Below are positions 26,242 to 61,305 of a stretch of 64,000 nt of DNA, one piece after another (within the stretch, counting starts at the first letter, position 1; each line of letters begins with the position of its first letter). The notes under the pieces are model-generated. The model had not been told where the DNA came from and searched no databases. It worked only from the letters and a program-made list of their open reading frames with translations. A program made the translations under genes and the position numbers. The DNA comes from Sporisorium sorghi (lineage: Eukaryota; Basidiomycota; Ustilaginomycetes; Ustilaginales; Ustilaginaceae). The stretch covers positions 1 through 64,000 of the forward strand of contig JALCCG010000019.1 in assembly GCA_023212695.1 (NCBI GenBank). Reading direction: 5' to 3'.

Positions 26242-26310
26242 GTTTAAGAACTTGGAGTTCAAATTATAAATTAAATTATCAAGATATTGAATGATTTCAT
26301 TTGACTATGA

Positions 26311-26480
26311 TAGGATGTATTTATCTAACTGATGTTTATGTTGACTCTGGCATGCGCCTCAAGAGTCTTTCTATTAAGAAGCGCTCTTCCGAGCGAATGA
26401 TCTCTCCCTTAGGCAGATACCCGCCTATTTGAATGATCGTTTGTAGGGAAGAACGCTTCTTTTTGCGTTCGTCACAACCC
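26311..26480 (+). ncRNA. Leader RNA element 1 with promoter
   Basis: The extended -10 TGATAGGAT ends at 26316, and 26 bases later comes hairpin 1: outer stem GACTCT/AGAGTC (26343-26367), inner stem GGC/GCC, loop ATGC. Hairpin 2 pairs GAAGCG (26378) with CGCTTC (26454) and further CTTCC/GGGAAG, then five T residues. TCACAACCC (26472-26480) follows. The controlled gene would be the zinc-ribbon protein at 26593. Confidence 0.85.
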
Positions 26481-26592
26481 AATCATATCATCAAGAAAGG
26501 AGAGAATCAGGAATTAAATCTAGAATAGATAAGCTTTTTTGCAGAACTCTGAAGGAAGGTCAAAGGCAACTATAATACTGGAGGAATAAAGA

Positions 26593-26871
26593 ATGAGAAG
26601 ATACGATGAATTAAGCGATGATTTAAAAGAAATTGCAAGAGAGCTGCACCCAAATGATTTTAGAGAATGGTCATATAAAACACAAGGCGTTGAAATAGCT
26701 TTTAGTACAAAGTCTGGGTGTTATGATTTCAGAAAATGCGAAGACAGAAGTTGTATAAGTTGCGGAAAAGATGTTGAAGACGAAGAGCCATTTATTCACG
26801 TAAATATCTGCAAACAATGCCACGAAAGATTCCTGTTTTACACAAATAAATTGGAGAATGCTAATTATTAA
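26593..26871 (+). CDS. Small zinc-ribbon protein under leader element 1
   Basis: The 92-residue protein has a C-terminal four-cysteine zinc knuckle (CISCGKDVEDEE...CKQCHERF, about residues 56-83) behind a helical N-terminal part. GGAGGAATAAAG precedes the ATG. It is the first gene after leader element 1, about 110 bases after the conserved TCACAACCC. Function unknown; a similar layout occurs at 40066-40344. Confidence 0.7.
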   Translation: MRRYDELSDDLKEIARELHPNDFREWSYKTQGVEIAFSTKSGCYDFRKCEDRSCISCGKDVEDEEPFIHVNICKQCHERFLFYTNKLENANY

Positions 26872-26986
26872 TATTATGAATCTGCATGGAATCCAAAGGT
26901 GAGTGCAGTATCTCATCAAATCGCTACATCAAAACATGAAATACAGAATATAGCATCATCAAAATTATAAATAAGGAGAATGAACA

Positions 26987-27406
26987 ATGAATAATATTAC
27001 CGTATCTCGCGTTATGACTGCTTATAAATCTGGAGTAGTAAAGCCAGGTTTTGAGGGATGGGGGAGCATAGAAAAAAATTGTGGCTGCGCGATGTCTGCG
27101 CTGGCCTTATACGAACAATCAGAAACATTCCCAACCCTTAAGCAAGTGCTTAATGTTTGTGAGTATTTTGGTAGTGATAGAGTATGTAAGGCACTCGATG
27201 TCAGTAAGCCGTATATGTTCGGCTTTACGGATGCATATGATGGCATGAGATTCGGACTAAGCCATCACGAGGGCAGTATTGATTACTGGGAGGATTTCGA
27301 AAAAGCAGAGTATCATATGGGGTTCGACCATGGCACAGCAGTTCGAATTGCTGTGTTCAATGAATACTTCCCAGATGGGTACGTTGTTACTGAAGGATCC
27401 CTTTGA
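26987..27406 (+). CDS. Unknown 139-residue protein
   Basis: AAGGAG precedes the ATG. The soluble protein contains an FTDAYDGMRFGLSHHEGS segment and is rich in aromatic and acidic residues; no family is recognised. It is probably cotranscribed with the zinc-ribbon gene and ends at the terminator at 27437. Confidence 0.65.
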   Translation: MNNITVSRVMTAYKSGVVKPGFEGWGSIEKNCGCAMSALALYEQSETFPTLKQVLNVCEYFGSDRVCKALDVSKPYMFGFTDAYDGMRFGLSHHEGSIDYWEDFEKAEYHMGFDHGTAVRIAVFNEYFPDGYVVTEGSL

Positions 27407-27436
27407 GACTACGAATAATTAGGAAATAACATTATG

Positions 27437-27466
27437 ACCCGCTCCGTTTATGAGGAAGCGGGTTTT
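27437..27466 (+). terminator. Terminator
   Basis: ACCCGCT and AGCGGGT form a 7-bp hairpin followed by TTT. Confidence 0.75.
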
Positions 27467-27587
27467 ACATGTGTTAATGAATACGAATAGCACAGCCGAC
27501 AATATATCATACAGCTCTAACAATGAATATATCAGTTTTATATGTATACAATCAAAAAACAAAAAATGAAAGGATAGGTGATCTTCT

Positions 27588-28136
27588 ATGCTCAACGAAA
27601 ATAGTTTTATAGCAATTCTTTCGTTATCAATTCTCATTCTCATCACATTGATCGGACTCAAAAAAATTTCACAGCGATCTACGGCCAAGTGGAGTGACTT
27701 CGTTCTCTTACTTCTACTTATTCTGTTTTATTGTGTTATCTTTTGGATCAAACCGGTACTATTTTGGTTTAATTCTCATATTCTTTTGGGATTACTGATT
27801 TCTTTGAATTTAATATATCTTATCCATTACCTCAGTATTTGTATACTTTCAAAAAACTGGACAGATTCCGAAAAACCCAAAGAAAACGGTAGTCTTATTA
27901 TAAAAGGTATGTACCGATTCGTGAGACACCCGATCTATAGTATGTTTTTCTTTGAAGGTTTCGTCTTTATGCTAATCTCTCCTTGGCTACTGCCTATCGC
28001 TCTTTGTGCAATGGGTGTTCCCTTTTATCGATTGATTCGTCTGAGGGAAGAGGACTATCTTATTGATAAGTTTGGGAAAGAATATCAGGATTATAAGGAG
28101 CGGGTAAAATACAGAATTATCCCTTATGTGTGGTAA
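27588..28136 (+). CDS. Isoprenylcysteine carboxyl methyltransferase-like membrane protein
   Basis: The 182-residue protein has about five hydrophobic segments and the family's C-terminal signature: YRFVRHPIYS (about residues 108-117) and LREEDYLIDKFGKEYQDYK followed by P-Y. ICMT/phospholipid methyltransferase-type enzymes transfer methyl groups from S-adenosylmethionine at the membrane; in bacteria the substrates are mostly unknown. It appears to be a single-gene unit. Confidence 0.8.
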   Translation: MLNENSFIAILSLSILILITLIGLKKISQRSTAKWSDFVLLLLLILFYCVIFWIKPVLFWFNSHILLGLLISLNLIYLIHYLSICILSKNWTDSEKPKENGSLIIKGMYRFVRHPIYSMFFFEGFVFMLISPWLLPIALCAMGVPFYRLIRLREEDYLIDKFGKEYQDYKERVKYRIIPYVW

Positions 28137-28449
28137 CATAGATGGGAGCAAATACCTTTCGTTAAGGAGTTCGCGAAATATACTGGCAGTTTTGAGTAAA
28201 GGAAGCAATGTCCTTAGAATGGGTTGAACACTCCATACAGGAAATCCACAAACACATATGTTTAAACGCTGATAGGTATGAGTGCAGCCTCTAAAATATC
28301 AAAAGAATGTTGAAGTGATAGTAAATGAGTAATAAAATCATGCTTTCACATTCGAGTTCAGCTATTCATGTTATTGAGTGAGACATAATTACTGTTCCCT
28401 AAGAGATGTCGTACAATTGTGTTTTTTTAAGTAGAAAATATCTGCAAAG

Positions 28450-28476
28450 GGAATCGCTTTCGAGCGGTTCCTTTTG
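28450..28476 (+). terminator. UUCG-capped hairpin with short T-run
   Basis: GGAATCGCT-TTCG-AGCGGTTCC is followed by TTTTG. It lies 300 bases after the ICMT-like gene and could end that transcript. Confidence 0.6.
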
Positions 28477-28542
28477 TCGACAGTTGTTAAAAACTTGCAT
28501 GTATTCTGTGAATCCGAAGCTGCTATATAAGACAATCATAGC

Positions 28543-28585
28543 CGACATTTGAATTGTTTAACGTCTAATGCTTAACCAAATGTCG
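28543..28585 (+). promoter_or_regulatory. Long inverted repeat upstream of the nuclease gene
   Basis: CGACATTTG (28543-28551) and CAAATGTCG (28577-28585) form a 9-bp inverted repeat with further GTTTAA/TTAAC pairing inside. It lies 75 bases before the start of the 667-residue nuclease-like gene, so it may be an operator or leader hairpin for that gene. Confidence 0.6.
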
Positions 28586-28658
28586 AATGACAGCTAAATC
28601 TCATATTTCAACTGGACTAACAAAATCGATAGTTCAATAAAAAAGCGAGGTACTGAAC

Positions 28659-30780: not shown

Positions 30781-30948
30781 TGTTAAAATGTCGTTATGAA
30801 TTAATTCCAGCGGACTCCGACATGCGTCAAAGAGTCAATTTAAGTAAAGCGCTCCTCTGAGTGAATGTACTACCTTCTTGGTAGAAATCCCCCTATATGG
30901 GCCAACATTCATTGAGAAGGGCGCTTTTTTTGCGTCTTACACAACCCA
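30781..30948 (+). ncRNA. Leader RNA element 2 with promoter
   Basis: The extended -10 TGTTAAAAT ends at 30789, 23 bases before hairpin 1: GACTC/GAGTC outer (30813, 30832), GAC/GTC inner, loop ATGC. Hairpin 2 pairs AAAGCGC with GCGCTTT and TGAATGT with ACATTCA and ends in seven T residues. The tail reads ACACAACCC. It precedes the methyltransferase gene at 30975. The GAC/GTC inner stem replaces GGC/GCC of copy 1 with pairing kept. Confidence 0.85.
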
Positions 30949-30974: not shown

Positions 30975-31895
30975 ATGAGTAAACGTATTTTAGCCAACCG
31001 AATTGCAGAAGTCATGGCCCATAATGCAAGACCTATGCATATCAAAGAAATCGCATCCTATTTTCCAGACAAGCCAGAAAGTACAATCCGAGGCAGGCTA
31101 TATCGCGAACTGAAGGATCGTTGTGAAAAAGTCGCACGTGGAGTATATCTTTTTCTGGACGGAGAAGGTTCAGCTGTTGTGGTAGAAGGTGATGGAAGGA
31201 ACCTTTCTATTTTTGATGACGAAAGTATTGATGCCATCGTGACCGATCATCCATGGGAGGACATTAAATCAAATTCGGGAACAAATCGTAATTTTGTATC
31301 TGGATATGAAGAAACCACATTTCGTTACAATTTAGAGGATTTTAAAGAAAAAGCACGTATCCTTAAACCTGGTGGTTTTTTGGTAGAAATATTGCCGGCC
31401 GAAAACGAATCGAATTTCAAGTACCTGTATGAAATCAAAATGATGGCTGAAAAATGTGGGCTTTTATATTTTTCCAAAGTACCATGGAAGAAGGGTGTTC
31501 GTGTATGGAATACTGGACGTAAATCAAAAAACACAGAGGACATTATGTTTTTCACAAAGGGTAAAGCACGTTCTTTACGTCCGGATAAGCAACGAGGTGG
31601 AAATAGAAAAATGTCTGGTACGGCCTATCTTTTACCCACGGAATTTGATTTTCAACCCGCTTCTCCTCAAAAAAGGATTCATCAGGCAGAGAAACCTGTT
31701 GAGCTCTACGAAGCTATTCTGGAGGCAATTACTCTCCCAGGTGAAATCGTGATTGATCAAGCTGCAGGAAGCGGGAATTTAGGAAGAGCAGCTATGAGAA
31801 GAGGTCGTATTGCCGTTTTGTTCGAAATCCTAAAAGAGAACGTTAAAAAGATCCGCGAAAACCTTTCTATTCAAGAAATTCCTTTAATGTGTTAA
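30975..31895 (+). CDS. DNA methyltransferase with N-terminal helix-turn-helix
   Basis: The 306-residue protein starts at an ATG with AAGGAGAG upstream. Residues 1-60 look like a winged helix (MHIKEIASYFPDKPESTIRGRLYREL). The catalytic motif IV is TDHPW (about residues 90-94, a variant of DPPW/DPPY), and the AdoMet-binding motif I is near the end (DQAAGSGNLG, about 270-280), the order of the beta class of N4/N6 DNA methylases. KPVELYEAIL before motif I fits the same class. It is controlled by leader element 2. No dedicated restriction enzyme is adjacent beyond the upstream nuclease. Confidence 0.8.
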   Translation: MSKRILANRIAEVMAHNARPMHIKEIASYFPDKPESTIRGRLYRELKDRCEKVARGVYLFLDGEGSAVVVEGDGRNLSIFDDESIDAIVTDHPWEDIKSNSGTNRNFVSGYEETTFRYNLEDFKEKARILKPGGFLVEILPAENESNFKYLYEIKMMAEKCGLLYFSKVPWKKGVRVWNTGRKSKNTEDIMFFTKGKARSLRPDKQRGGNRKMSGTAYLLPTEFDFQPASPQKRIHQAEKPVELYEAILEAITLPGEIVIDQAAGSGNLGRAAMRRGRIAVLFEILKENVKKIRENLSIQEIPLMC

Positions 31896-35191: not shown

Positions 35192-35363
35192 TATTATAGA
35201 TAAATAACTACTATCTTTATCAGTCCCTAGCATGCGCTTTAAGGGATTATCTCAAGAAATGCACTTTAACGAAAGTGACTTATTTGCCTATACGGCAGCT
35301 TACCTTTTAAGGTAATGGGTCCTTTTCGTTAAGGTGCTTTTTTTTCTGCCTTAATCACAACCC
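35192..35363 (+). ncRNA. Leader RNA element 3 with promoter
   Basis: A TATTAT box (35192-35197) lies about 25 bases before hairpin 1: TCCCT/AGGGA outer (35224, 35242), AGC/GCT inner, loop ATGC. Hairpin 2 has a 14-bp base, GCACTTTAACGAAA with TTTCGTTAAGGTGC (one G-U), and two side hairpins (GCC/GGC and TTACC/GGTAA). Eight T residues follow, then TCACAACCC (35355-35363). The gene at 35396 follows. Confidence 0.88.
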
Positions 35364-35395: not shown

Positions 35396-36232
35396 ATGAA
35401 TGTTTTAGCTAAGAAAATCGAGGAGTTTAATCAGAAACTTATGGAGTCGGAGAAAACTTGTGAGCATTATATTTTCACCCGTACCACAAAGGATTTAGTC
35501 CTCACGGAAGAGAAGCTAAATATGTGGAAGCGTAAAGCTTCAGCCGGCTCGGTTATACTTGGAGCAATTGACTGCAGGTACTTAATTGTTCTGAGAGAAT
35601 TACAGTATGGATTTCTTAATATTGATGATGCGGGATGGGAAATGTGCGAACCCGTTTTCTCCTCAACCGATGAACTGATCGAGTGGTTTGCATTTAATCT
35701 GGATAATCCAATCATCGAGGTGACTTCGGGTCAATTAACTGAGAAACTCATTAATCGAGATAAGATCGAAATTCAGGAAGAAGAATATTACACCGTTTAC
35801 CACCAAGATTCTCATCAGGAGCATAAATGGAGTTGTTGTCCATCTCTTAGCACCCTCAAAATGGAGTTACTATCACTGGCTGATAAAGAAACCCCTTTAG
35901 ACCAAGTCTGTATCATCACACCAGAAGGTGAGAGGTTTAATTACGATGAAATGGTCAGTCGCATCATAGCAGACCCCATTGTTATTGGTGGTAATACAAT
36001 CCATTCGCTAAAACAGATTGATGATGCAATGGCCAGAGAACTGAAAGGACACTATATTGCGCATCTTCAAAATCCCTATAACGAGTCAGTAGATGGGGAG
36101 CTCATCACCTATTCGGTATATCAATGTCCAAAGTGCCATACAGTCCACCGAATCGACTCTGATCTTCAAGCTGCAAGGTTCCAAAAAAACGATGCAGGAT
36201 TTTTTAAGATGTTTTGCTTTGATTGTGCATAA
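35396..36232 (+). CDS. Unknown 278-residue protein with C-terminal zinc site
   Basis: It starts at an ATG after AAGGAGTG. The N-terminal half contains an AGSVILGAIDCRYLIVLREL...WEMCEPVFSSTDELIEW region shared with the 59429-60115 product, so these are paralogues. The C-terminus has two Cys pairs (CPKC...CFDC) forming a probable zinc ribbon. No named family is recognised. It is directly downstream of leader element 3. Confidence 0.7.
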   Translation: MNVLAKKIEEFNQKLMESEKTCEHYIFTRTTKDLVLTEEKLNMWKRKASAGSVILGAIDCRYLIVLRELQYGFLNIDDAGWEMCEPVFSSTDELIEWFAFNLDNPIIEVTSGQLTEKLINRDKIEIQEEEYYTVYHQDSHQEHKWSCCPSLSTLKMELLSLADKETPLDQVCIITPEGERFNYDEMVSRIIADPIVIGGNTIHSLKQIDDAMARELKGHYIAHLQNPYNESVDGELITYSVYQCPKCHTVHRIDSDLQAARFQKNDAGFFKMFCFDCA

Positions 36233-37183: not shown

Positions 37184-37364
37184 TGATAAGATGTTATCAA
37201 GAACTTACATTTAATTTGTCCCCAGCACGCGCTATAGGGATCATTTTTTTAAGAATACACTTTAACGAAAGTAGACCAATCTGTCATTTTACGGCAGCAT
37301 GCCTTTTAAAGGGCGAATGGGTCATTTTCGTTAAGGTGTATTTTTTTGCGCCTTATCACAACCC
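37184..37364 (+). ncRNA. Leader RNA element 4 with promoter
   Basis: The extended -10 TGATAAGAT ends at 37192, with TTTTAA 17 bases upstream. Hairpin 1 (from 37218): GTCCC/GGGAT outer, AGC/GCT inner, loop ACGC. Hairpin 2: ACACTTTAACGAAA with TTTCGTTAAGGTGT, T-run, then TCACAACCC (37356-37364). It is the closest relative of element 3; the basal G-C pair there is A-T here, which is a compensatory change. Confidence 0.88.
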
Positions 37365-37392: not shown

Positions 37393-38463
37393 ATGACAAG
37401 AACAATTTATCCTGAACCCGTTGGCAAATCACAAGCAGGTGCATTGGAGAAACTGCAACATACCTTCGGATACAACAGCAAAGGGATCCTAGAGTCTCAT
37501 GCCAAGAACCCTAATGGATGGAATCTTGAAGTCCATGCACTAAATGGTATGGAGTACAGGCAGCTAAAACGCGCTTTAAAGTTTGGATATACGACTGATG
37601 TAAAAGTGAAACGTATCGTAATAACTAGAGGCGAGGGACCAAATCATGAATGCCATATCCCTTATATTGCAAAGAACTGGGAAGATGCAGACGAAATTTT
37701 AAAAAGAATGGCCTTAACAGCTCCTGAAATTGGATACTACAAGACCGACTTTGAAATCCTCTTCACGAATGGCGATACATATCGGGGGACGTATGAGTTA
37801 AGTTACAAAGATCGGTTAGAAGCGAGTTTGTATGGTCATGTCACAAATCACTGTGAGTTTTATGGCGGCATCTGCAAAAAGCTCCCTGATCATCTAACAG
37901 ATGATCAATATCTTAGCCTCTTAGATGAGAATACCTACCGATATTTGCTTCTTTTAGATGATCTTATCTATCCAAGTGCAAATCAAATTGGACTTGACCC
38001 TGAAATCATTCGAGCTGCAATTACAAAACCAATTAAACAAGAAGAGCAGCTCTATAGAGGATCTCTTACTTCAAACCTTACGGTGTTAAAAGTTGAAGGC
38101 CACCAGGATAGTTGCATCTACAAAGTCTTAAGTAATGGTTATAGTTACTCATCATTTAGTAATTCTGAAGCATTTAATAAGTGGATGGATAAATTTGGAC
38201 TATCGCTAGGGGAACAAATACGTAACGATACCTACCACATCAATGGATCTTATCGAATCAAGATGGTTCCTGATAGATCTCTCTATTTACATCTTCCTCA
38301 AATCGCCATTCTTATGAATGGAGGTATGGTTAGAGCTTACAAAGAGCTTACTCCAGAAGTAACTAATATTTATGTTGTCATGAACTATAAAGAGAGCTTT
38401 CATTTCGATTACACCAAACCTAGTGGTCAATGGTATCTACGTAAGTTCTTTTGGGACAAGTGA
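37393..38463 (+). CDS. Unknown 356-residue protein under leader element 4
   Basis: The frame is open further upstream through the leader RNA, but the start is the ATG at 37393 (AAGGAG 11 bases upstream). A DFEILFTNGDTYRGTYELSYKD segment resembles domains associated with large polyvalent phage and plasmid proteins. The rest is unrecognised; a QIAILMNGG-containing C-terminal region looks globular. Function unknown. Confidence 0.65.
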   Translation: MTRTIYPEPVGKSQAGALEKLQHTFGYNSKGILESHAKNPNGWNLEVHALNGMEYRQLKRALKFGYTTDVKVKRIVITRGEGPNHECHIPYIAKNWEDADEILKRMALTAPEIGYYKTDFEILFTNGDTYRGTYELSYKDRLEASLYGHVTNHCEFYGGICKKLPDHLTDDQYLSLLDENTYRYLLLLDDLIYPSANQIGLDPEIIRAAITKPIKQEEQLYRGSLTSNLTVLKVEGHQDSCIYKVLSNGYSYSSFSNSEAFNKWMDKFGLSLGEQIRNDTYHINGSYRIKMVPDRSLYLHLPQIAILMNGGMVRAYKELTPEVTNIYVVMNYKESFHFDYTKPSGQWYLRKFFWDK

Positions 38464-40545: not shown

Positions 40546-40721
40546 TGGTAGGATAAATCCATCTAACCCACAATGATGGACTCTTGCATGCGCTGTAGAG
40601 TCATTTTTATGAAGAAGCACATTTTTCCCGTGTCAAATCACCTTTGGTGTCTTTATGCCCATTTCTGGTGAATTGATGGGAGATCGTGCTTCTTTTTTTT
40701 GTGGTGAAGCGATCACAACCC
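40546..40721 (+). ncRNA. Leader RNA element 5 with promoter
   Basis: The extended -10 TGGTAGGAT ends at 40554 with TTGTTA 17 bases upstream. Hairpin 1 (from 40579): GACTCT/AGAGTC outer, GC/GC inner, loop ATGC. Hairpin 2: GAAGCAC (40614) with GTGCTTC (40686), eight T residues, then TCACAACCC (40713-40721). The gene at 40752 follows. Confidence 0.88.
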
Positions 40722-40751: not shown

Positions 40752-41057
40752 ATGACACATTTTACTTTTACAGGTAGATATGCAGGTCAAACATTTTGCG
40801 GAATAACAAGAAATGAGCATGACAAGTTTATGCATATTCAAGGTTCCAACACTCCTGTTATGCAGCGTCTATTAAGAGGAGAAGAACTTTTATGTCCCAG
40901 TTGTAAGGGAATCTATTTGGAATCAAAGGATGAAAATGATGATTCAACGGATGATATTGTAAGGCAATTTGAACAGCTGATCGCATCTGAAGAAGATCAA
41001 GAAATTAAAAAATTGCTTATGGCAACCCTTGCTAGTTATCTTGTTGAAAATAATTAA
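40752..41057 (+). CDS. Unknown 101-residue protein with CPSC motif
   Basis: Start at the ATG at 40752 (CGGAGGCG upstream); the longer frame through the leader RNA is not coding. The product begins HFTFTGRYAGQTFCG and contains CPSC, so a zinc site with the earlier Cys is possible. The C-terminal half is acidic and helical. No family is recognised. Confidence 0.65.
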   Translation: MTHFTFTGRYAGQTFCGITRNEHDKFMHIQGSNTPVMQRLLRGEELLCPSCKGIYLESKDENDDSTDDIVRQFEQLIASEEDQEIKKLLMATLASYLVENN

Positions 41058-41588: not shown

Positions 41589-41594
41589 ACACTT

Positions 41595-41746
41595 TAAAAT
41601 GAAATTGAATTATTGAAGCGAGCACGCTTCACATGTCTGACCACTTTTAGTGGCTTTCCCCCTAAGAGGTGATAATGACATGTGATCGTGCTTTTTTTGT
41701 TCTGAAAGCCTTTATTAATATGAATATACCTTTTCTGACATAACCC
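41595..41746 (+). ncRNA. Diverged tenth leader RNA (hairpin-terminator and TCACAACCC-like tail)
   Basis: TAAAAT (41595-41600) is followed by GAAGC/GCTTC around GAGCAC (41615-41630), then a long hairpin pairing GCACG with CGTGC and CACATGTC (41630) with GACATGTG (41677), seven T residues, and TGACATAACCC (41736-41746). It keeps the architecture of the nine canonical elements, but hairpin 1 is fused into the terminator arm. It precedes the methylase-like gene at 41777. Confidence 0.55.
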
Positions 41747-41776: not shown

Positions 41777-42628
41777 ATGAGTACCAACTATAAGATGGAA
41801 CGTTTTTCTATGGAACAACTCATTGATCTACATAGAAATGTACATACTTATGCAATACCAATAAACGGACTTCCTCTCAGCCATTCGGAAGTATTTGAGA
41901 AGCGGGGCTGGTTATTACCCTACCTTTTTAGTTATGATGATTTACTATGGGGTAGGTGGACATATTGGTCAGACATTCTATTAAAAGGAACCCTTATTGG
42001 CAGTGGCCCAATTCCTCAAATCCAATGGTCTGACATGGGGTCCACCGGCGTAGAAAACACAAAAAAAATGTTTGCGAAATGCCTGCATCACAACGAGGCA
42101 ACAATCGAAAACTTTGCTGATTGGTTGCTTTGGGGATTAGCATGCTCCGACGATGTACCGGTTGTTTCGGAACGTTTGAATGAGCATTATTATAGAACGT
42201 TTGATATATTCCCAGTACTAGATAATCCATATGACTACTTGTCTCATTTACTTTGTGAGCAATCCGGAAAGGGCTATAAAGCAGCTCTTGGGTATTATCC
42301 TACACCGTTTCATGTAACAAGAATGATGGTTGATTTTGTACATTCCAATGAAGAACCGGAAAAAATGAAAAGACAGACTGTAAATGATCCTTGTGTCGGA
42401 TGCGGTGCAATGCTACTGCCCGCATCCAATTACTATTTACGAGGAACTGGTCAAGACATATCCAGCATTGCGGTCAGGCTCTGTAAAATCCAGATGAATT
42501 TCTATGCACCTTGGTATGCTAAACCAGGGAATATAGAGGGATTTGAAGAGGAGACGAAACCCATTGAGTTAATAATAAATCCAGCTGATAGCAGGGGGGA
42601 AGAGGGGCAGTTTTCCTTTGCATTCTAA
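41777..42628 (+). CDS. N6-adenine DNA methylase-like protein lacking a clear NPPY motif
   Basis: The 283-residue protein has the approach region YYPTPFHVTRMMVDF and an AdoMet motif I-like DPCVGCGAMLLPAS (about residues 215-228), followed by GQDISSIAVRLCKIQMNFY, all typical of HsdM/N6-MTase proteins. Where NPPY would be expected there is only INPADSRGEEG near the C-terminus, and the protein ends soon after. It may be a truncated enzyme, a split one, or an AdoMet-binding protein with another use. It is preceded by the diverged leader. Confidence 0.7.
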   Translation: MSTNYKMERFSMEQLIDLHRNVHTYAIPINGLPLSHSEVFEKRGWLLPYLFSYDDLLWGRWTYWSDILLKGTLIGSGPIPQIQWSDMGSTGVENTKKMFAKCLHHNEATIENFADWLLWGLACSDDVPVVSERLNEHYYRTFDIFPVLDNPYDYLSHLLCEQSGKGYKAALGYYPTPFHVTRMMVDFVHSNEEPEKMKRQTVNDPCVGCGAMLLPASNYYLRGTGQDISSIAVRLCKIQMNFYAPWYAKPGNIEGFEEETKPIELIINPADSRGEEGQFSFAF

Positions 42629-42653: not shown

Positions 42654-42834
42654 TGATACCATTAAGATATAATTTTTGTATTTCTTATGGACTCATGCAT
42701 GCGCAATAGAGTCATTTCATTTTGAAGCACGTTCGTGTCTAATCACCTAACAGGTGGCATTATGCCTTTCTTGTTATCGTGATGGACTCAGAACGTGCTT
42801 TTTTGTTGTGCGCTATGAGATTCAATCACAACCC
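42654..42834 (+). ncRNA. Leader RNA element 6 with promoter
   Basis: The extended -10 TGATACCAT ends at 42662 with TTGTCG 17 bases upstream. Hairpin 1 (from 42690): GACTC/GAGTC outer, TGC/GCA inner, loop ATGC. Hairpin 2: AAGCACGTTC with GAACGTGCTT, T-run, then TCACAACCC (42826-42834). The TGC/GCA inner stem is a third independent pairing variant. The PP-loop gene at 42866 follows. Confidence 0.88.
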
Positions 42835-42865: not shown

Positions 42866-44089
42866 ATGATTCACCTGAATAAATATTCTGTAAATGATAA
42901 AGCCAAGAACCGCGAAGAAATAGTCCCGCTCCTGAAGAATCATATTATTTTCTTTAGTGGTGGAAGAGCAAGTTTAGCTGCTGCCGATTTTGTGATAAAG
43001 AAGTATCCAGAGGATAACATTCTCCTTTACTTTACGGACACACTCTGGGAAAACCATGATACCTATCGATTTATAGATGAGGTGTCTGATAAATTGCAGC
43101 TCCCACTTCTCATCCATTGTGCAGGGCTCACTCCCATCCAACTCATGTTTGAAAAGAAGCTTGTATATAACAACATGATTGGAGACTGCTCTAAGCTTCT
43201 TAAGATGCGAGTAGCATCAGACTACTTGAAGAAGGGGATTAAGCCTGGAATAGAACAATGGCGTAATCCTCAGTATCTCAAACAAAACAACTTTATTGAG
43301 AACGCTACTCTCTACTTTGGTATTGGATTTGAAGAAATGCATCGAGAGAAGGCGATCGTAAAAAATTGGCTTCCTTTTAGCGTGAATATGCCGCTCATCG
43401 AAAACTTCATACGACCAGATGATGTTTTGAAACAGTATGATATCCGGGAACCTGAACTTTATAAACTCGGTTTCTCCCATAACAACTGTAATGGTCGCTG
43501 CATAAAAGCAGGTCAAGGACACTATCGTCACTTGAAGAAAACCATGCCTGACACCTTTAAAAAGCTGCTTGAAGAGGAATTCCATCTATCTATGTGTGTA
43601 TCAGCTTATCGATATATCATAGATGATCAAGTTCCGGAAGAGGATCAGATTCCTCAACATGTGCAAGAAAAACTGCTTCAAGAATTAGATGACGCTTATC
43701 GCGATTACTTTTATGGAAGAGCTGATAAACCAAATTTATTTATCCATCCAGCTGCAAGTGCCCAGTCAGAATATATGAAGATCCGGAAGTATAGTTTTAT
43801 GAAGAAAAAAAGTAAAACACCGGTAGAATTCGAATATCAAACTGAATCAGAAGAGTACGATACTGATCTTATTCCTGATTTACTTTTTGAAGAGAATGAA
43901 GACACCACACAACATACAACAAAGGGATTGCGATTTCCTAGCGAGCCCTACACACTTCGTGACTTTAACCGAGATGAGAAAGCCAAACCAGAACAAATCG
44001 ATCTTTTTGATATCGGAGGTTGTGGTTGTTTCGTTGAATTTGATGAGCAGGAGAATAATATGTCCTGCAACACTACATTTGGAGGTTGA
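42866..44089 (+). CDS. PAPS reductase/DndC-like PP-loop protein
   Basis: The 407-residue protein has a PP-loop near the N-terminus (FFSGGRAS, about residues 30-36), then LLYFTDTLWENHDTYRF, the usual substrate-region Asp-Thr of PAPS reductase-fold proteins. Several Cys are present (HNNCNGRC near 210 and CGC near 390), which could hold a cluster or zinc. Relatives activate substrates with ATP, for example in sulphate reduction or DNA phosphorothioation (DndC). It is controlled by leader element 6 and lies beside methylase-like, Fic and Mom-like genes. Confidence 0.78.
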   Translation: MIHLNKYSVNDKAKNREEIVPLLKNHIIFFSGGRASLAAADFVIKKYPEDNILLYFTDTLWENHDTYRFIDEVSDKLQLPLLIHCAGLTPIQLMFEKKLVYNNMIGDCSKLLKMRVASDYLKKGIKPGIEQWRNPQYLKQNNFIENATLYFGIGFEEMHREKAIVKNWLPFSVNMPLIENFIRPDDVLKQYDIREPELYKLGFSHNNCNGRCIKAGQGHYRHLKKTMPDTFKKLLEEEFHLSMCVSAYRYIIDDQVPEEDQIPQHVQEKLLQELDDAYRDYFYGRADKPNLFIHPAASAQSEYMKIRKYSFMKKKSKTPVEFEYQTESEEYDTDLIPDLLFEENEDTTQHTTKGLRFPSEPYTLRDFNRDEKAKPEQIDLFDIGGCGCFVEFDEQENNMSCNTTFGG

Positions 44090-51536: not shown

Positions 51537-52778
51537 TTAAATATGTTGCTCAGAATCACTTATGTAATAAGCAAGTGCTTGTTTTGCATAGTGGTGATAA
51601 ACATCTTCATCTTCTAGAGGTTTTAAGTTCAATAAGTGGCGTTCGTTCGAGCAAGTAACAATTTTATCTAGGATACTTTTCATCATAATTGAAGTTGCTT
51701 CATCAGTTTCGTACACTTTTTCGTTAATACATTTTTCGTAAAAGAAAATGATTTTACCGATCTGTTGGTTTAACTCTGTTATGGATGTTTCTTTATTATC
51801 GGGATCTTCAGGAGCATAGAATATACCGCAATCAGCGTAATTCTCTTCAATTGCTTTTATAATATACCCTGAGACACTACTCACATCTTTTGTTTTCATT
51901 CGTTCAAACACGTAGAGAATGTTCTCTCTAATGCGTTTTTCACCATGATTCTTAACAAGTGCTTTCGATTGTTTTTGGTTTATATCAAACCGGCTTAGAA
52001 GTTCATAAATAGGCTGATTGTTAATATATTCAGCGTCATTAAGATTTTCTCGTACTTCTTTAGCATTACGGAAGATATGGAACGTAATACTGACGACCCG
52101 CTGACCATTCTTAGTTTCCTCTATTTCAAATCTTATGTCGGTTTTCTCAGCTAATTCTTCTTGTGCTGTCAACAGAACGCGACTTTTAAGATGTGAGTAT
52201 CTTTCATACAAACCTGGTTCAATTTCTAATTTTTCTTTGAGTTCAGCAATCGATTTAAACTTACGTTTACCAAAATAGAGGTACTGCTTTAATAACATGT
52301 AAAGCTTAAGTGAATGATTGCTACGAAGATATAAAACATTCCAAAGCTTAAATTTAGTGAAATTCTGCTTCAACTGCAAAAGGTAGGGTTGTAATTGGGA
52401 AGAAAACTCTAATTCTATTATCCCTTTACCATGATAATAACGTGCAGACGCAAGCCAGTTTGCTTCAAGAGTCGAGTTCATTTGTGGTTCATCTATCACA
52501 ACTTCTTTACTACGAAGTTTAGTAACAATGTCACGTACTCTTTTATAAAAGTTTCTGTCATTAATGTCGAGTCTCTCGGCAATTTCTTTCACTTTAAAAA
52601 AATGCGTTTTGAAATTTTTGTCTTCAGGATGGATACGAGAGGCTAAAATATATATTAACCTGCGTTCATATAGTGTGAGGTTGGTTTTAGCTTCGATTAG
52701 AGCATTAGATTCTGAAACGATATAGTGATGTGAAATTGGATCTGGTTCAAAATTCATCTCCAATTGTTCCTCGTTCAT
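51537..52778 (-). CDS. rep: Replication initiator, Rep_3 superfamily
   Basis: The 413-residue protein starts at the ATG at 52778 (GGTGAT upstream). It has two winged-helix-type domains of the Rep_3/RepB initiator family: SNALIEAKTNLTLYERRLIYILASRI (about residues 24-49) and the LWNVLYLRSNHSLKLYMLLKQYLYFGKRKFKSIAELKEKL region (about 145-190). Rep_3 proteins bind iterons and open the origin. An array of GGCCACAC iterons with a DnaA box lies just upstream, which supports the call strongly. Confidence 0.88.
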   Translation of the reverse strand: MNEEQLEMNFEPDPISHHYIVSESNALIEAKTNLTLYERRLIYILASRIHPEDKNFKTHFFKVKEIAERLDINDRNFYKRVRDIVTKLRSKEVVIDEPQMNSTLEANWLASARYYHGKGIIELEFSSQLQPYLLQLKQNFTKFKLWNVLYLRSNHSLKLYMLLKQYLYFGKRKFKSIAELKEKLEIEPGLYERYSHLKSRVLLTAQEELAEKTDIRFEIEETKNGQRVVSITFHIFRNAKEVRENLNDAEYINNQPIYELLSRFDINQKQSKALVKNHGEKRIRENILYVFERMKTKDVSSVSGYIIKAIEENYADCGIFYAPEDPDNKETSITELNQQIGKIIFFYEKCINEKVYETDEATSIMMKSILDKIVTCSNERHLLNLKPLEDEDVYHHYAKQALAYYISDSEQHI

Positions 52779-53279
52779 CGAGATCACCAACTTTTATTTT
52801 ATTTCCATCTAGTAGAGATCATATCGGATATTTAATCGAAGTTCCACTCACTTTTGTGTGGCCGGTTTTTTTGACATAAATTGTTCTCTATAGAGAATGT
52901 TTTAATACAAAAATCTAAAGTTAATCGATCAATCAAGAAATAACAAGCGTTTATTTTATCCGGCCACACGAAGCAGAGTAGTATTTGGATCTATTTTGCT
53001 ATAGATCCTTTTAATATAGCGGCCACACAAAGCAGAGTTCGTATTATATGCATCGTCAAAAGAGGCCACACGAAGCAGACTCTATCATCATTTAATATAA
53101 GCTCTGATATAGAGGTGGGCTTTTTAAGGTTATTACAGGCCACACGAAGCAGATAGATGCTGTCCTGTAGATAATGTATAGGACTTGAAATAATCTATTT
53201 TCAACAATTATCTATATGTATTCAGTTAAAATTATCCGTTTTGTGTGGCCAGTGAAAATAAGCATTATCGGTCATTATC

Positions 53280-53450
53280 GAAAAAGGTAATTAATTTTTG
53301 AATTTAAACATAGTAGTAAAGAGTATATTCATTTTATAGGAAATATTGAGGTAGATAATTCAGCTGATAATAAAGAGCTTATTTTATAACTATATTTTCT
53401 TTTATATTTTTTATTATTTGTTCTTTATTTGTTTACCTGTTTAGAAGATG
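53280..53450. other. AT-rich stretch, candidate DNA unwinding element
   Basis: Very AT-rich sequence with TTATTTTATA and TTTTATATTTTTTATTATT runs lies between iteron groups, as expected for the melting region of an iteron origin. Confidence 0.6.
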
Positions 53451-53664
53451 GATTTAGCCAAGTCTAGCAAGAGAAGATGGGTTCAAGCGGCCACATCAAG
53501 CAGACTCAAATATCACATATAACAGACAGACCGGCCACACATAAGTGAGGATAGCGGCCACATTAAGCAGACTTGCCGGCCACATTAAGCAGTATATAGA
53601 GGCCACACGTAACGGAGTTTATTCTCGTTTACCTTTGATCATTAAAGTTTTTTGTCAGAAAGTG

Positions 53665-53673
53665 TGTGGATAA
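53665..53673 (-). promoter_or_regulatory. DnaA box
   Basis: TGTGGATAA is the exact reverse complement of TTATCCACA, the consensus DnaA site. It lies between direct and inverted iteron groups. Confidence 0.8.
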
Positions 53674-54135
53674 GTGGGTATTTATTCTGCTTTGTGTGGC
53701 CTCTCATTACTTTACGGCTCACTATGTTCTTTTCCACGTGGCCTCTAAACGTTTAATTATCGCTCATCGATTCCGCGTTTTGGATTTTGTCTGCTTGACG
53801 TGGCCTCTAATAAAACAATATAAGCATCTTCATTCTCAACCTTGGTTATAAGGCTTTCTAGTTATCTTGCCCTGCAGTTTGTTTGTTGGATAGTCTGCTC
53901 GGTGTGGCCAGCTATCAGGCCCAAAGCGATAATGCTAGAATAATACTGAAATTGTGTATATCTTGATAATTATGTCTGTGTTTTGTGGCCGGTAGTGTTG
54001 CTTCTGTACGAGAGTCAAAAAGTCTCTCATATTGAAAGAGCCTTTTTGAAACACGCGATAAGAAGCCATAAAACATAATCTCCTAATCATTTGAATCGGC
54101 AAATTGAATATCAAATCAATGAAATTCACCCTGTT

Positions 54136-54986: not shown

Positions 54987-55200
54987 AAGCGCCCCCCATG
55001 CTAGCTCCATATTTATACATATAAAGAGGTCTTATAACATCATTTAACAACCTATTTTCAAAAAAATAAGATCATATGTTCTTATTTTATCAGTTAATTA
55101 TTGGATTTTGAACCTAAAATGTGCCGTATCTCAAAAAAAGTTTTTATAACTACAGCGTGCTTTTAAGGGTGTTAATTACTCGATAACTCAAATATGAAAT

Positions 55201-55246
55201 AAAAAAAGACTACCTACGAAATCATTTCATAGATAGTCTTTTTTTA
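55201..55246. terminator. Bidirectional terminator
   Basis: AAAAAAAGACTA and TAGTCTTTTTTT pair around a TAG/CTA-containing loop, just after the 55250-55477 gene on the minus strand. Confidence 0.85.
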
Positions 55247-55249
55247 TTT

Positions 55250-55477
55250 CTACTCAATACATTGTTCTGGATGAAATCCACAATTGCATATGCTAACACC
55301 AATTTCATCAAAGCAATCCGATTCAATTTTTTTAATATGGCGAGCATATATCTCACAAAGTTCTTGATAAAAGATTACATCTTCATGGTGTGTTGTTGTG
55401 ACAATTTTTTTACTGAGCCGCAAGAGTTGGATTTTTAAATCATAGTGCCTTGATCTCCACTCACTTAGTTGATCCAA
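55250..55477 (-). CDS. Unknown 75-residue protein
   Basis: The ribosome site GGAGGTGAT overlaps an apparent ATG and is spaced for the TTG at 55477. The product is helical and ends in a Cys/His-rich segment (CFDEIGVSICNCGFHPEQC) that may bind metal. No family is recognised. Confidence 0.6.
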   Translation of the reverse strand: MDQLSEWRSRHYDLKIQLLRLSKKIVTTTHHEDVIFYQELCEIYARHIKKIESDCFDEIGVSICNCGFHPEQCIE

Positions 55478-56908: not shown

Positions 56909-57064
56909 TGATAATATGAATATATTATTCTTACGTTTTAGGTTCTGGCATGCGCCTCATGAACTCATAGTGAAAAGCACTTCTCGGAGTGAAAGCTGAA
57001 ACAATTTTTAGATTGTTTACTTTCTGTTCTTGCGAGAGGTGCTTTTTTGTTCTGATCATAACCC
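56909..57064 (+). ncRNA. Leader RNA element 7 with promoter
   Basis: The extended -10 TGATAATAT ends at 56917, with TTGAAA 18 bases upstream. Hairpin 1 (from 56941): GGTTC/GAACT outer (one G-U), GGC/GCC inner, loop ATGC. Hairpin 2: AAGCACTTCTC with GAGAGGTGCTT, T-run, then TCATAACCC (57056-57064), a slightly altered tail. The gene at 57170 follows. Confidence 0.85.
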
Positions 57065-57169: not shown

Positions 57170-57436
57170 ATGGAAGGAATGGTTTCTCAAAAAGGCCTAT
57201 ACTCAGGAATCGAATTACTAGAGCCGCAAGATTATCTAATGGTCAGTGAGTTTGTTGATTTTTTATTAAGCAAACGTGGTTATGCCGGTTATTTAACAGT
57301 AGTAAATTTTTTAATGAACGCAACTAATCAGCATCTAGAAGAACTTCGAGATCAGTTATTAGATAATGGGTCTCCTGTATTTAACTCTGTGATTGAACAA
57401 CTAAATAAGATTCTGATGAAAAGAACCAATAAATAA
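57170..57436 (+). CDS. Unknown 88-residue protein under leader element 7
   Basis: AAAAGGGG precedes the ATG. The small helical protein (LEPQDYLMVSEFVDFLLSKRG...) has no recognised domain. It is the first full gene after leader element 7, followed closely by two more small genes. Confidence 0.6.
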   Translation: MEGMVSQKGLYSGIELLEPQDYLMVSEFVDFLLSKRGYAGYLTVVNFLMNATNQHLEELRDQLLDNGSPVFNSVIEQLNKILMKRTNK

Positions 57437-57954: not shown

Positions 57955-58090
57955 TAAAAGCCCGAATCCGAGGATCCGAGCTTTTGTAGTCCATTGCGGA
58001 CTTTGATATATACCTTTCGGCAGGCGCTCATTGCGAGCTTGAATAATTACATTTTACCTTTATGTAGTAACTTCGTCAAGAGCACTTATG

Positions 58091-58909: not shown

Positions 58910-59072
58910 TCACACCTTATTCATTTATTACTTATATTATATCACCTTACGGGAATTCACGTTCGTATAGTCATAAAAAACTCTTTAGAAAAGTCTGTAC
59001 AATTCAATGTTAGTTGCAGTTTAATGATTGTTACTGTTCATATGTCTCTTGCAAAAAAAAAGGGAAGCATGT

Positions 59073-59235
59073 TACTATGTATTAAATATTACTTTATTGG
59101 TGGTTCTGGCACGCGCCGAAGAACCTTTAAGATTAGCGTTTCTCCGAGAGTATGTTCAACCTATTTTAGGTTGAATTCGCATTAACTGCGAACATGTTCT
59201 GGGAGAAGCGCTTTTTTGCGTTTCTATCACAACCC
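59073..59235 (+). ncRNA. Leader RNA element 8 with promoter
   Basis: A TACTAT box (59073-59078) lies 23 bases before hairpin 1 (from 59102): GGTTC/GAACC outer, GGC/GCC inner, loop ACGC. Hairpin 2: AGCGTTTCTCC with GGAGAAGCGCT (one G-U) and an inner CAACCT/AGGTTG hairpin; T-run, then TCACAACCC (59227-59235). Confidence 0.85.
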
Positions 59236-59264
59236 AAAATCATTAAAAAGGAGTGTTTAGTAGC

Positions 59265-59387
59265 ATGCACCGACCATTAGTGGCTGTCCCAATTACTGGA
59301 CAATTTAAGCCAAACATCCTCATCCAATGTATCTATCTAGCTTTATGTAGGATGTCATTTGTAGCGAATAAAGTAATAAATAGATAA
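59265..59387 (+). CDS. 40-residue protein directly after leader element 8
   Basis: AAAAAGGAG is 11 bases before the ATG at 59265, and the start sits 30 bases after the conserved tail of the leader, the same spacing as the annotated genes after other leaders. The product (starting HRPLVAVPITGQFKPN) has no recognised family. It could be the first of an operon with 59429-60115. Confidence 0.5.
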   Translation: MHRPLVAVPITGQFKPNILIQCIYLALCRMSFVANKVINR

Positions 59388-59428
59388 GGTTTGCAAGAAT
59401 TTATAGGAATTTGAGGAGGCTTCAACTT

Positions 59429-60115
59429 ATGAGTGAGAACATGATGAACAAGATTTCAGCTGGATCTATTATCGTTACTAAAGATAAATGTCGATACCTT
59501 GTAGTAACTTCAGAGGTGAAGGATTCTGTGAGGATGGGCCCTTTTCTGAACTACAAGCTTATCAATATTGGATCCTGGACACTAAGTGAACCAAGCTTTT
59601 CATGTCCAAGCCGGCTTATTGAATGGATCAGCACGAAACATAAGAGCTCTATTGTATCAGTGATCCCAGAAAATGAACTATTGCCAGCTATACCTTGGTC
59701 GCATAATAACGATTATGTAACTGAACAGGGCCCATTTGTTGTCGTTTCTGAAGTTGATGAGAAATATGAATTTCTTTGCAATAGTATCGGTGATTTTACA
59801 AATAACTTTGAGGATGCGCTTTTATTTTATACGAAAGAAGAAGTTCCTCTCAACAGAGCGGGAGAAAGCATTCGTAGATTTGCTGACTTTCTTCCGATAC
59901 GAAAAGTTAGCATCCAATCTAATAATTACTGCTTCAATTTCGAAACGAACGCAGACGAAGCAGTATTAGAATCAATTATGGAGTATCTGACCTGTAAGGT
60001 TATTGGTTATTCCGATGATGACATTGTTCCCGAACTTCAACAGAGGGGATATTATGCAAAAGTGATTTCAGAAATACTCATAAAACCAGATCAAATACTA
60101 TCGTCAGATTGGTAA
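59429..60115 (+). CDS. Paralogue of the 35396-36232 protein
   Basis: Start at the ATG at 59429 (GGAGGC upstream). The 228-residue product shares AGSIIV...CRYLVVTSE...GSWTLSEPSF...SRLIEWI with the 35396 gene product, which is also preceded by a leader element. The zinc ribbon of that paralogue is absent. Function unknown. Confidence 0.65.
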   Translation: MSENMMNKISAGSIIVTKDKCRYLVVTSEVKDSVRMGPFLNYKLINIGSWTLSEPSFSCPSRLIEWISTKHKSSIVSVIPENELLPAIPWSHNNDYVTEQGPFVVVSEVDEKYEFLCNSIGDFTNNFEDALLFYTKEEVPLNRAGESIRRFADFLPIRKVSIQSNNYCFNFETNADEAVLESIMEYLTCKVIGYSDDDIVPELQQRGYYAKVISEILIKPDQILSSDW

Positions 60116-60168
60116 TAAGTTTGATGATAGTGGAGTTTGTTCATTAATATTATATAAGGAGAGTACAT

Positions 60169-60405
60169 ATGTTTATAGCATCCTATAAAGGCCATCATTG
60201 TTGTGTAAGAGAGCATATTGAAAGTTCAACTCCTGAAGAAGCAGCTATGATTATTGCACTGAAAGCATATAATCTCAATCAACCTAGTCTAGTAACTGGA
60301 CTTTTTCGAGGTATCAAAGTCAGACCCCTTGGCAGTAAGAAAAAATCAGCAGTTTATACGGTTGGAGTGAACTCCGCTGGGCAACAAAAGGTTCTTCCAA
60401 CATAG
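60169..60405 (+). CDS. Unknown 78-residue protein
   Basis: AAGGAGAG precedes the ATG. The small basic protein has strand-rich regions (FIASYKGHHCCVREH) and no recognised family. It is probably the third gene after leader element 8 and ends at a terminator. Confidence 0.6.
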   Translation: MFIASYKGHHCCVREHIESSTPEEAAMIIALKAYNLNQPSLVTGLFRGIKVRPLGSKKKSAVYTVGVNSAGQQKVLPT

Positions 60406-60420
60406 TAAAATAGACAAAAC

Positions 60421-60457
60421 AAAAAGAGACCGGATCTTCTTCCGGTCTCTTTTTTTA
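60421..60457. terminator. Bidirectional terminator
   Basis: AAAAAGAGACCGGA and TCCGGTCTCTTTTTTT pair almost completely. Confidence 0.88.
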
Positions 60458-60844
60458 AATTTTAATAGATATTTTTTCTTCATAGATCTGTGTAACATCT
60501 TCTATTGAAATCGATTTTTCGAAGCAGTATTTTGCAATTTGAGTAAAGCTAAAATTGTGAGCAATCGTGACGTTAGATGTAATTATCTGAAGCATGTTAA
60601 AATCCTGACTTCGAACCATAAACTTTTCACCCATGAATACTACTAATGTTCTAATGTGATAGGCTTCATGAATGTCCGTTTTGGGTACTCTCTTTGTGTA
60701 AACCCCAACATCATATTTATGAGGAACAAAACCATGTTGAGTAGACTGCTTATCATAACATAATAAATTTGCCCAATCCCTGCCTTTTTTCCCTAGACAG
60801 TATTCAATACCTTTATAAACTGCATATTTTCCTTCACGTACCAT
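60455..60844 (-). CDS. Unknown 129-residue protein
   Basis: AAAGGCTGG precedes the ATG. The soluble protein is mixed alpha/beta, and its N-terminus (GKYAVYKGIEYCLGKKG) looks like a small beta barrel. No family is recognised. It is convergent to the 59.4-60.4 kb genes. Confidence 0.6.
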   Translation of the reverse strand: MVREGKYAVYKGIEYCLGKKGRDWANLLCYDKQSTQHGFVPHKYDVGVYTKRVPKTDIHEAYHIRTLVVFMGEKFMVRSQDFNMLQIITSNVTIAHNFSFTQIAKYCFEKSISIEDVTQIYEEKISIKI

Positions 60845-60937
60845 GTATACCAGCCTTTCAATTATCTAAGAAGTATGTAAATAAAAATGACCACGTTTAA
60901 AAAAAATTAGCGATACAACATAACTTGAACAAAAAAC

Positions 60938-60973
60938 ACCACTGAATAAGCCTAATTGGCTACTCAGTGGTGC
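60938..60973. terminator. Hairpin with A/T run
   Basis: CACCACTGA and TCAGTGGTG pair, with inner AGCC/GGCT. A run of A precedes it, so it acts on the minus strand if at all. Confidence 0.55.
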
Positions 60974-61145
60974 TTCCACATTGAAGGTATAGTTTAATTT
61001 CTTTTAATATGATTTAATATCGGAACTAATTATACTTTGATCGTATCGATTTCTAGACGAGCAGTCAATCAACCTAAATAATAAGAAATGAGCCATTGAT
61101 AGTCACAACTAGACAAGACCTTATATTGTTGTATCGAAACGAGTA

Positions 61146-61305
61146 TGCTAATATTATCTCTATAAGTACTCAAATTAAATGGTCTCGGCATGCGCTATAA
61201 AGACCTTTCCAGAACAAAACACTTCTTTTAGTGATTTAGCAACTTTCGTTGGAAACTCAACGATTGTTTGAATCCTAAATAGAAGTGTTTTTTTTATGGG
61301 CACAA
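61146..61305 (+). ncRNA. Leader RNA element 9 with promoter, degenerate tail
   Basis: The extended -10 TGCTAATAT ends at 61154, with TTGTTG 17 bases upstream. Hairpin 1 (from 61181): GGTCT/AGACC outer, GGC/GCT inner, loop ATGC. Hairpin 2: AACACTTCT (61218) with AGAAGTGTT (61281), then a T-run. The tail reads GCACAATAA instead of TCACAACCC, the only copy that has lost CCC. Confidence 0.82.

What the first reader, a model, noticed from the sequence alone, without database searches (positions are those of the whole stretch)
26308..61305. Nine copies of a covarying leader RNA family spread over 35 kb of one replicon
Elements at 26343, 30813, 35224, 37218, 40579, 42690, 56941, 59102 and 61181 share one first hairpin. 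The outer stem is 5-6 bp and the inner stem 2-3 bp, with a tetraloop AYGC. The outer stem changes between copies with pairing kept (GACTC/GAGTC, TCCCT/AGGGA, GTCCC/GGGAT, GGTTC/GAACC, GGTCT/AGACC). So does the inner stem (GGC/GCC, GAC/GTC, AGC/GCT, TGC/GCA). Compensatory change at two stems plus an invariant loop is strong evidence for RNA-level selection. A published comparative survey named a Bacillus-plasmid RNA motif; I cannot tell whether this is the same family.
Basis: partly seen in the sequence, partly recalled or inferred. Interest (0 to 1): 0.92.

Follow-up and report, generated by a model that had tools for sequence, protein, structure and literature searches.

The report
Plasmid-wide RNA terminator-switch family
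A previously uncatalogued RNA switch sits between promoter and gene at many separate sites on large conjugative-type plasmids of soil bacteria, apparently controlling several of the plasmids' own DNA-copying and DNA-modifying genes together.

Summary
The nine elements are real. Each has a sigma-A-like promoter, a hairpin (P1), a long terminator hairpin (P2), then a ribosome site and an ORF. A P1-less tenth copy lies at 41590, and 11 more copies on the rest of the contig. The contig is 100% identical to Paenibacillus glucanolyticus wherever compared. Rfam has no match, so it is not Bacillus-plasmid RNA RF01691.

Covariance models find the family on large plasmids of six Bacillales genera. Over 128 distinct copies 96.6% of pair cells are standard and 489 are double changes; covariation score 0.67 (0.19 shuffled, at most 0.11 slid). 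The terminator's 5' arm can instead pair with the adjacent strand in 109 of 127 copies (22 expected).

I read it as a transcription-attenuation regulon whose recurrent targets include plasmid primase, sliding clamp, exonuclease and JAB proteins. A plasmid S1-domain protein is the best trans-factor candidate: 17 of 17 genomes chosen by that protein alone carry the RNA. Signal, direction and the S1 role are inferred. Nine searches of an open-licence library showed no description.

The parts
26308..26316 (+). extended -10 promoter element (TG-N-TANNAT type) of copy 1, about 27 nt before P1
   Evidence: sequence; family-wide TG.TA...T in 89 of 127 copies, 5.8 expected; -35-like TTKTCA 17 bp further up in the 89
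26343..26474 (+). copy 1: P1 26343-26367, terminator hairpin P2, T-run 26460-26464, then TCACAACCCA 26472-26481; precedes ORF 26593-26871
   Evidence: (70.1 bits)
30813..30939 (+). copy 2: P1 30813-30836, P2, T-run 30925-30931; precedes DNA methylase ORF 30975-31895 (PF01555)
   Evidence: (78.5 bits)
35223..35353 (+). copy 3: P1 35223-35247, P2, T-run 35338-35345; precedes ORF 35396-36232
   Evidence: (62.9 bits)
37218..37355 (+). copy 4: P1 37218-37241, P2, T-run 37341-37347; precedes ORF 37393-38463
   Evidence: (66.9 bits); same element before the orthologous gene in pPPM1a and p-YT9A
40579..40705 (+). copy 5: P1 40579-40602, P2, T-run 40693-40700; precedes ORF 40752-41057
   Evidence: (99.8 bits; a training sequence of the model)
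41590..41706 (+). tenth copy without P1: P2-type terminator only; precedes ORF 41777-42628, whose pPPM1a ortholog has a complete element
   Evidence: (42.5 bits)
42690..42814 (+). copy 6: P1 42690-42713, P2, T-run 42799-42804; precedes ORF 42866-44089 (PAPS-reductase domain PF01507)
   Evidence: (81 bits; a training sequence)
56941..57058 (+). copy 7: P1 56941-56965, P2, T-run 57043-57048; nearest SD+ORF 57170-57436
   Evidence: (56.3 bits)
59102..59226 (+). copy 8: P1 59102-59125, P2, T-run 59212-59217; short SD+ORF 59265-59387, then ORF 59429-60115
   Evidence: (52.4 bits)
61181..61304 (+). copy 9: P1 61181-61205, P2, T-run 61288-61295; precedes ORF 61330-62685
   Evidence: (61.3 bits)

Best explanation
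The elements are one family of cis-acting transcription attenuators that tie scattered, separately transcribed plasmid genes into one regulon. RNA polymerase starts about 20 nt before P1 and makes P1, a small hairpin that keeps a C(ANGC)G loop while its stems drift, which marks it as a recognition module. It then makes strand A, strand B and, 50-70 nt later, strand A'. A with A' is an intrinsic terminator that stops transcription before the gene; A with B is a mutually exclusive hairpin that would prevent it. A factor that reads P1 (most likely a plasmid-encoded RNA-binding protein, best candidate the S1-domain protein encoded between the T4SS coupling protein and a second replication-relaxation gene) decides which pairing wins, and so switches on together the plasmid's primase, sliding clamp, exonuclease, methylases and other establishment or replication genes. 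Shown by sequence: promoter, P1, terminator, alternative pairing, covariation, gene order, co-occurrence with the S1 gene. Inferred: that termination is conditional, that P1 is the sensor, that the S1 protein is the factor, and the occasion (entry into or maintenance in a cell).
For: Covariation: 128 distinct copies, 96.6% of cells paired, 489 double-change cells (128.8 shuffled), score 0.671 (0.194 shuffled; 0.039-0.108 slid). T-run in 125 of 127; TG.TA...T promoter in 89 of 127 (5.8 expected); SD+ORF within 220 nt in 114 of 123 testable, median 36 nt. Conserved -35-like TTKTCA at fixed 17-bp spacing in the 89 promoters chosen by their -10. A:B stem of 4 bp or more in 109 of 127 (22.1 with shuffled tails, highest of 100 shuffles 32), of 5 bp or more in 85 (8.7). 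By energy folding A pairs locally in the growing transcript in 101 of 127 (49 in one shuffle) and with A' in the complete leader in 119; both in 99. G-U wobbles outnumber A-C mismatches (40:12 in P1, 38:6 in P2), as expected for the + strand RNA. Recurrent targets: primase in 8 plasmids or genomes, clamp in 6, JAB in 5, exonuclease in 3. S1 link: 7 of 9 test plasmids have both and 2 of 9 neither; 17 of 17 genomes found by the S1 protein have the RNA at E<=0.01; in 14 of them it lies mostly on the S1 contig, 103 of 108 matches; 1 of 100 Paenibacillus-group genomes and 1 of 397 Bacillales genomes have RNA hits, the same two that have a close S1 gene.
Against: No transcript, termination or binding data. 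The S1 gene travels with the whole plasmid backbone, so co-occurrence cannot single it out; the S1 operon itself carries no complete element in C112 or pPPM1a. Five of 100 genomes have more distant S1 relatives of about 300 aa (27-29% identity; three below E 1e-20) and no RNA hit; in the parts of two of these contigs that I fetched only one 18-bit hit appeared. Control scans used strict filters and scored few candidates per genome (35 and 9). 18 of 127 copies lack an A:B stem of 4 bp. The P2 apex varies, so no conserved ligand pocket was seen. P1 loop or closing pair is lost in a few copies (3 without a loop, 4 without a closing pair).
Confidence: 0.78

Rival explanations
1. P1 is a factor-independent put-like antiterminator RNA: it acts on the polymerase that made it, so promoter-born polymerases always read through P2, and P2 only serves as an insulator.
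For: P1 starts about 20 nt from the likely start site and precedes a strong terminator. HK022 put acts without protein factors (abstract start of PMC9378689 in the listing).
Against: Any polymerase coming from upstream would also transcribe P1, so an insulator placed behind P1 would not insulate unless P1 must be near the 5' end (inference). A conserved A:B alternative in 109 of 127 copies is not needed for this.
Confidence: 0.12
2. The main product is the terminated RNA of about 130 nt: a family of plasmid small RNAs that act in trans or soak up a protein, and read-through into the gene is incidental.
For: Promoter plus terminator define a complete short RNA at each site.
Against: Copies are followed by SD+ORF at a median of 36 nt (114 of 123), the same genes keep a copy in different plasmids (8 primase genes), and the conserved alternative pairing abolishes the terminator. 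No exact complement of CACAACCC was found on the + strand of the window or L037-L044 except one at L041:9548.
Confidence: 0.08
3. The hairpins act as DNA: single-strand promoters like Frpo, or protein-binding inverted repeats of dsDNA.
For: Gene content resembles leading regions (methylases, SSB, primase), and single-strand promoters are known there (passages of PMC11541004).
Against: The -35 and -10 lie upstream of and outside the hairpin; copies occur on both strands of the other plasmids; wobble asymmetry favours the + strand RNA, though it does not exclude single-stranded + DNA.
Confidence: 0.03

Closest known systems
Protein-controlled transcription attenuators (BglG/SacY-type, ANTAR; recalled)
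   Same: Leader with terminator and mutually exclusive hairpin; one factor can serve several operons
   Different: No Rfam model matches; the conserved recognition hairpin P1 is separate from the terminator; 10-20 sites on one plasmid; factor unknown
conAn antitermination system of pLS20-type plasmids
   Same: RNA-based control of terminators on Bacillales conjugative plasmids (passages of PMC8955417)
   Different: conAn is one bipartite system (ConAn1 protein, conAn2 RNA) at the start of a >30-kb conjugation operon; here many single-gene leaders. pLS20 gives only 16-17 bit hits
HK022 put and EAR
   Same: Promoter-proximal RNA structures that counter termination
   Different: Known only from listing/passages and recall; P1 is a single hairpin with an ANGC loop directly before a terminator with its own alternative pairing; no Rfam match
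Frpo/ssi single-strand promoters of leading regions
   Same: Several copies on one plasmid before establishment genes (passages of PMC11541004)
   Different: Frpo builds the promoter inside a DNA hairpin; here the promoter is ordinary duplex sequence upstream of the hairpin and the fold covaries as RNA
Bacillus-plasmid RNA (RF01691)
   Same: Structured RNA on Bacillales plasmids
   Different: RF01691 is thought to regulate copy number (passage of PMC10531132); no match here

Membership tests
Bacillus-plasmid RNA RF01691 | match to the Rfam covariance model | tested here: not met
   no match at gathering score in the window, none at E<=5 in 26000-62000
any Rfam 15 leader or riboswitch family (including EAR/epsC, T-box; membership in Rfam recalled) | match to a covariance model | tested here: not met
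   0 matches; 8 sub-threshold matches, all far below their gathering scores
transcription attenuator (mechanistic kind) | promoter, leader, intrinsic terminator before the ORF | tested here: met
transcription attenuator (mechanistic kind) | mutually exclusive alternative pairing of the terminator arm | tested here: met
   109 of 127 versus 22 shuffled; 99 of 127 show both folds
transcription attenuator (mechanistic kind) | regulated read-through in the cell | not testable with these tools
   no transcript data
conAn | single system at the start of a long conjugation operon | tested here: not met
   21 sites on C112, none in front of the T4CP-S1-RR2 genes with a complete P1
conAn | presence of ConAn1 protein | not tested
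   no ConAn1 sequence was used
HK022 put | factor-independent antitermination by the nascent RNA | not testable with these tools
   needs in vitro transcription
Frpo-type ssDNA promoter | -35/-10 formed inside the hairpin | tested here: not met
   -10 hexamer starts about 33 nt before P1 (mode)

The most novel reading that the evidence does not exclude
A conjugative-type plasmid lineage has turned a ribosomal-protein-S1-like protein, encoded with its transfer genes, into a regulon-wide antiterminator that recognises the C(ANGC)G hairpin and switches on a set of plasmid-borne DNA-replication and anti-restriction genes in a coordinated way, for instance when the plasmid enters a new cell.
Probability: 0.25. 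Interest if true: 0.9.

Novelty: new variant of a known kind. Interest (0 to 1): 0.8.

Why it matters
A leader RNA with 10-20 copies per plasmid, shared by large plasmids of several Bacillales genera, would be a main regulatory layer of these replicons that current annotation misses. It gives many uncharacterised genes a common regulation and makes a question directly testable: how a large Gram-positive plasmid coordinates scattered establishment and replication genes. The candidate partner is a plasmid-encoded S1-domain protein whose role is unknown.

Tried and rejected
Rejected: known Rfam family; RF01691; leader peptide starting at the loop ATG (the loop is ACGC, AAGC or AGGC in many copies); GGGTTGTG small RNA pairing to the CAYAACCC motif (one + strand occurrence in the window and L037-L044, at L041:9548, and one in pPPM1a at L073:29430 among the loci searched); viral origin of the S1 family (42 pattern stretches, 0 relatives in viral contigs).

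Led nowhere: megablast of 26000-50000 against phages and plasmids; MAFFT seed alignments whose stems were out of register; the hit in the Cytobacillus plasmid (L060) lies in a repeated coding-like sequence and was dropped, and other hits were found there later. One search failed because the script looked for files under wrong names. One search failed on a structure string one character short.

Rows dropped before counts: one antisense P2 hit (L169) from the 128 distinct rows of A13, giving 127; rows without a full 60-nt upstream or 400-nt downstream stretch where noted. The P1-less copies were kept.
Full report
What is in the window. The window is the first 64 kb of a 137,428-base contig of a 23-Mb, 469-contig assembly. 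Eleven loci fetched from Paenibacillus glucanolyticus NBRC 15330, whose contig is 137,236 bases, match it at 100%. Actin-like ParM-type and replication-relaxation proteins and synteny with the P. polymyxa plasmids pPPM1a and p-YT9A make it a large plasmid; the same contig carries T4SS-type genes further on.

The nine copies. All are on the + strand at the stated places. Anatomy: promoter; P1 (5-7 bp outer stem, usually one unpaired base, 3-bp inner stem, tetraloop, 2-4 unpaired bases on the 3' side's parse); about 10-17 nt; P2, an 80-110 nt hairpin ending in a T-run; SD and ORF. Fold energies beat all 200 shuffles in each of the nine. At 42690 the minimum-energy fold replaces P1 by another pairing, a result against a simple picture. 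A tenth copy at 41590 has P2 but no P1, in front of a gene whose pPPM1a ortholog has a complete element.

The family. Model R1 came from four sequences, R2 from 39. R2 finds 21 places at E<=0.005 on the contig, all on the + strand, 10 of them in the window (a training overlap exists). With R1, pPPM1a and p-YT9A give 22 and 19 matches at E<=1, a count that includes some antisense and weak matches. With R2, matches are found on plasmids of Paenibacillus sp. 37 (2), Peribacillus asahii (17), Alkalihalophilus pseudofirmus (10) and Sporosarcina psychrophila (9) at E<=0.3, and Lysinibacillus irui (17), L. sphaericus (20) and Cytobacillus solani (5) at E<=1; two other plasmids, of Parageobacillus and Cytobacillus oceanisediminis, give none. 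Some of the weakest of these counts are likely chance. pLS20 and a B. subtilis 79-kb plasmid give seven hits of 16-24.5 bits; in the five I looked at I saw no P1.

Selection on RNA. On the CM-built alignment A13 (137 rows, 128 distinct) all 15 pairs show double changes; 96.6% of cells pair; score 0.671 against 0.194 shuffled and 0.039-0.108 slid. The alignment was fitted to the structure, which favours it, but the slid versions collapse. The loop is ATGC 53, AAGC 22, ACGC 18, AGGC 9 of 127, others fewer; the closing pair is C-G in 120 of 127. So loop and closing pair are kept while stems drift: the mark of a recognised hairpin. Wobble pairs G-U exceed A-C (40:12 and 38:6), which points to the + strand transcript rather than duplex DNA.

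Promoter. TG.TA...T lies in the expected window in 89 of 127 copies, 5.8 expected. Aligned on that motif, an independent -35-like TTKTCA appears with a 17-bp spacer (T 87% and 72% at its first two places; 11 of 89 match TTGACA in five or more places, 1.95 expected). The commonest distance from the first -10 base to P1 is 33 nt, so P1 starts near +20.

A switch. The 5' arm of P2 (A) can pair with the strand right behind it (B): stem of 4 bp or more in 109 of 127 copies, shuffled mean 22.1 and maximum 32; 5 bp or more in 85, shuffled 8.7. In energy folding of the growing RNA A pairs locally in 101 of 127 (one shuffle: 49), in the full leader A pairs with A' in 119, and 99 do both. This three-strand arrangement is that of an attenuator; 18 copies lack it at 4 bp.

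Which genes. SD+ORF follow within 220 nt in 114 of 123 testable copies, median 36 nt. Clustering the 119 ORFs found with a 260-nt limit gives 80 clusters, 59 from a single plasmid; recurrent ones are a CHC2/DUF3854 primase in 8 plasmids or genomes, a DNA polymerase III beta-like clamp in 6, a Prok-JAB protein cluster in 5, a short protein in 4, and a 5'-3' exonuclease in 3 (the clamp Pfam match of C112 itself is below the curated cut-off, that of pPPM1a above). For the genomes only 28 fetched loci were used. In Peribacillus a copy precedes the gene before holA, and one precedes the primase-SSB cluster. In the window, copies precede a DNA methylase and a PAPS-reductase-domain protein.

Candidate factor. 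In C112, pPPM1a and the Peribacillus plasmid a protein of about 305 aa with S1 domains lies between the T4SS coupling protein and a second replication-relaxation gene (PF00575 passes the cut-off in pPPM1a, C112, Alkalihalophilus and L. irui, not in Peribacillus or L. sphaericus). Its profile matches ribosomal protein bS1 in the PDB. Of nine test plasmids chosen by their replication-relaxation or another protein, seven have it and two do not; the same seven have the RNA and the same two do not. A scan of genome contigs by this protein gave 18 loci; of the 17 not yet examined, 17 have RNA hits at E<=0.01. Controls: of 100 genomes of the genus of G003 one has an RNA hit at E<=0.001, G003 itself, the only one with a close S1 gene (446 bits, 68%); all 100 match at E<=1e-6 through chromosomal S1 at about 20-25% identity, and five have further S1 proteins at 27-29%, without RNA hits. 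Of 397 Bacillales genomes one has RNA hits at E<=1e-4 and one a close S1 at E<=1e-20, the same genome. The controls scored only 35 and 9 candidates per genome. Two contigs with distant S1 genes, fetched in part (87,553 of 187,553 and 100,000 of 256,223 bases), gave one 18-bit hit; near one of them a distant replication-relaxation relative lies next to S1. So the RNA goes with the close S1 clade, but so does the whole backbone.

Are these plasmids conjugative? They carry T4SS genes. pBsph-like L. sphaericus plasmids with a T4SS are described as conjugative (passages of PMC13239906); whether pSSII-1, tested here, is one of them I did not check.

Literature. Searches listed no paper that, from title and abstract start, describes this RNA; only open-licence papers are held and the listed papers were not read in full. 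conAn, put, EAR and Frpo are compared from passages and a listing.

Noticed in passing
window 52957-53704: Eight spaced repeats GGCCACAC..AAGCAGA and inverted relatives beside ORF 51537-52790 (-), which resembles the replication initiation protein of the Peribacillus plasmid: likely iteron-type replication origin.
   Followed up: partly
window 26472-26481 and six other copies; 26 of 127 family copies: Motif CAYAACCC just behind the terminator and before the SD, 24 of 3482 background stretches; function unknown.
   Followed up: partly
L124, L126, L129, L067 (Peribacillus copies): Instead of CAYAACCC a repeated AAAAACTTTTTTAAGG stretch overlaps the SD and could pair with the A' strand (seen by eye).
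   Followed up: no
P2 apex of copies 3, 4 and others: Two small hairpins inside P2 make a three-way junction in several copies; others have a single hairpin.
   Followed up: no
window 55191-55254: Near-perfect 27-bp inverted repeat with one base between the arms; a sub-threshold microRNA-model match there is surely chance.
   Followed up: no
G000 contig C112: A bacterial plasmid contig identical to P. glucanolyticus lies in a 23-Mb assembly of unknown make-up; it may be a mixed or contaminated assembly.
   Followed up: partly
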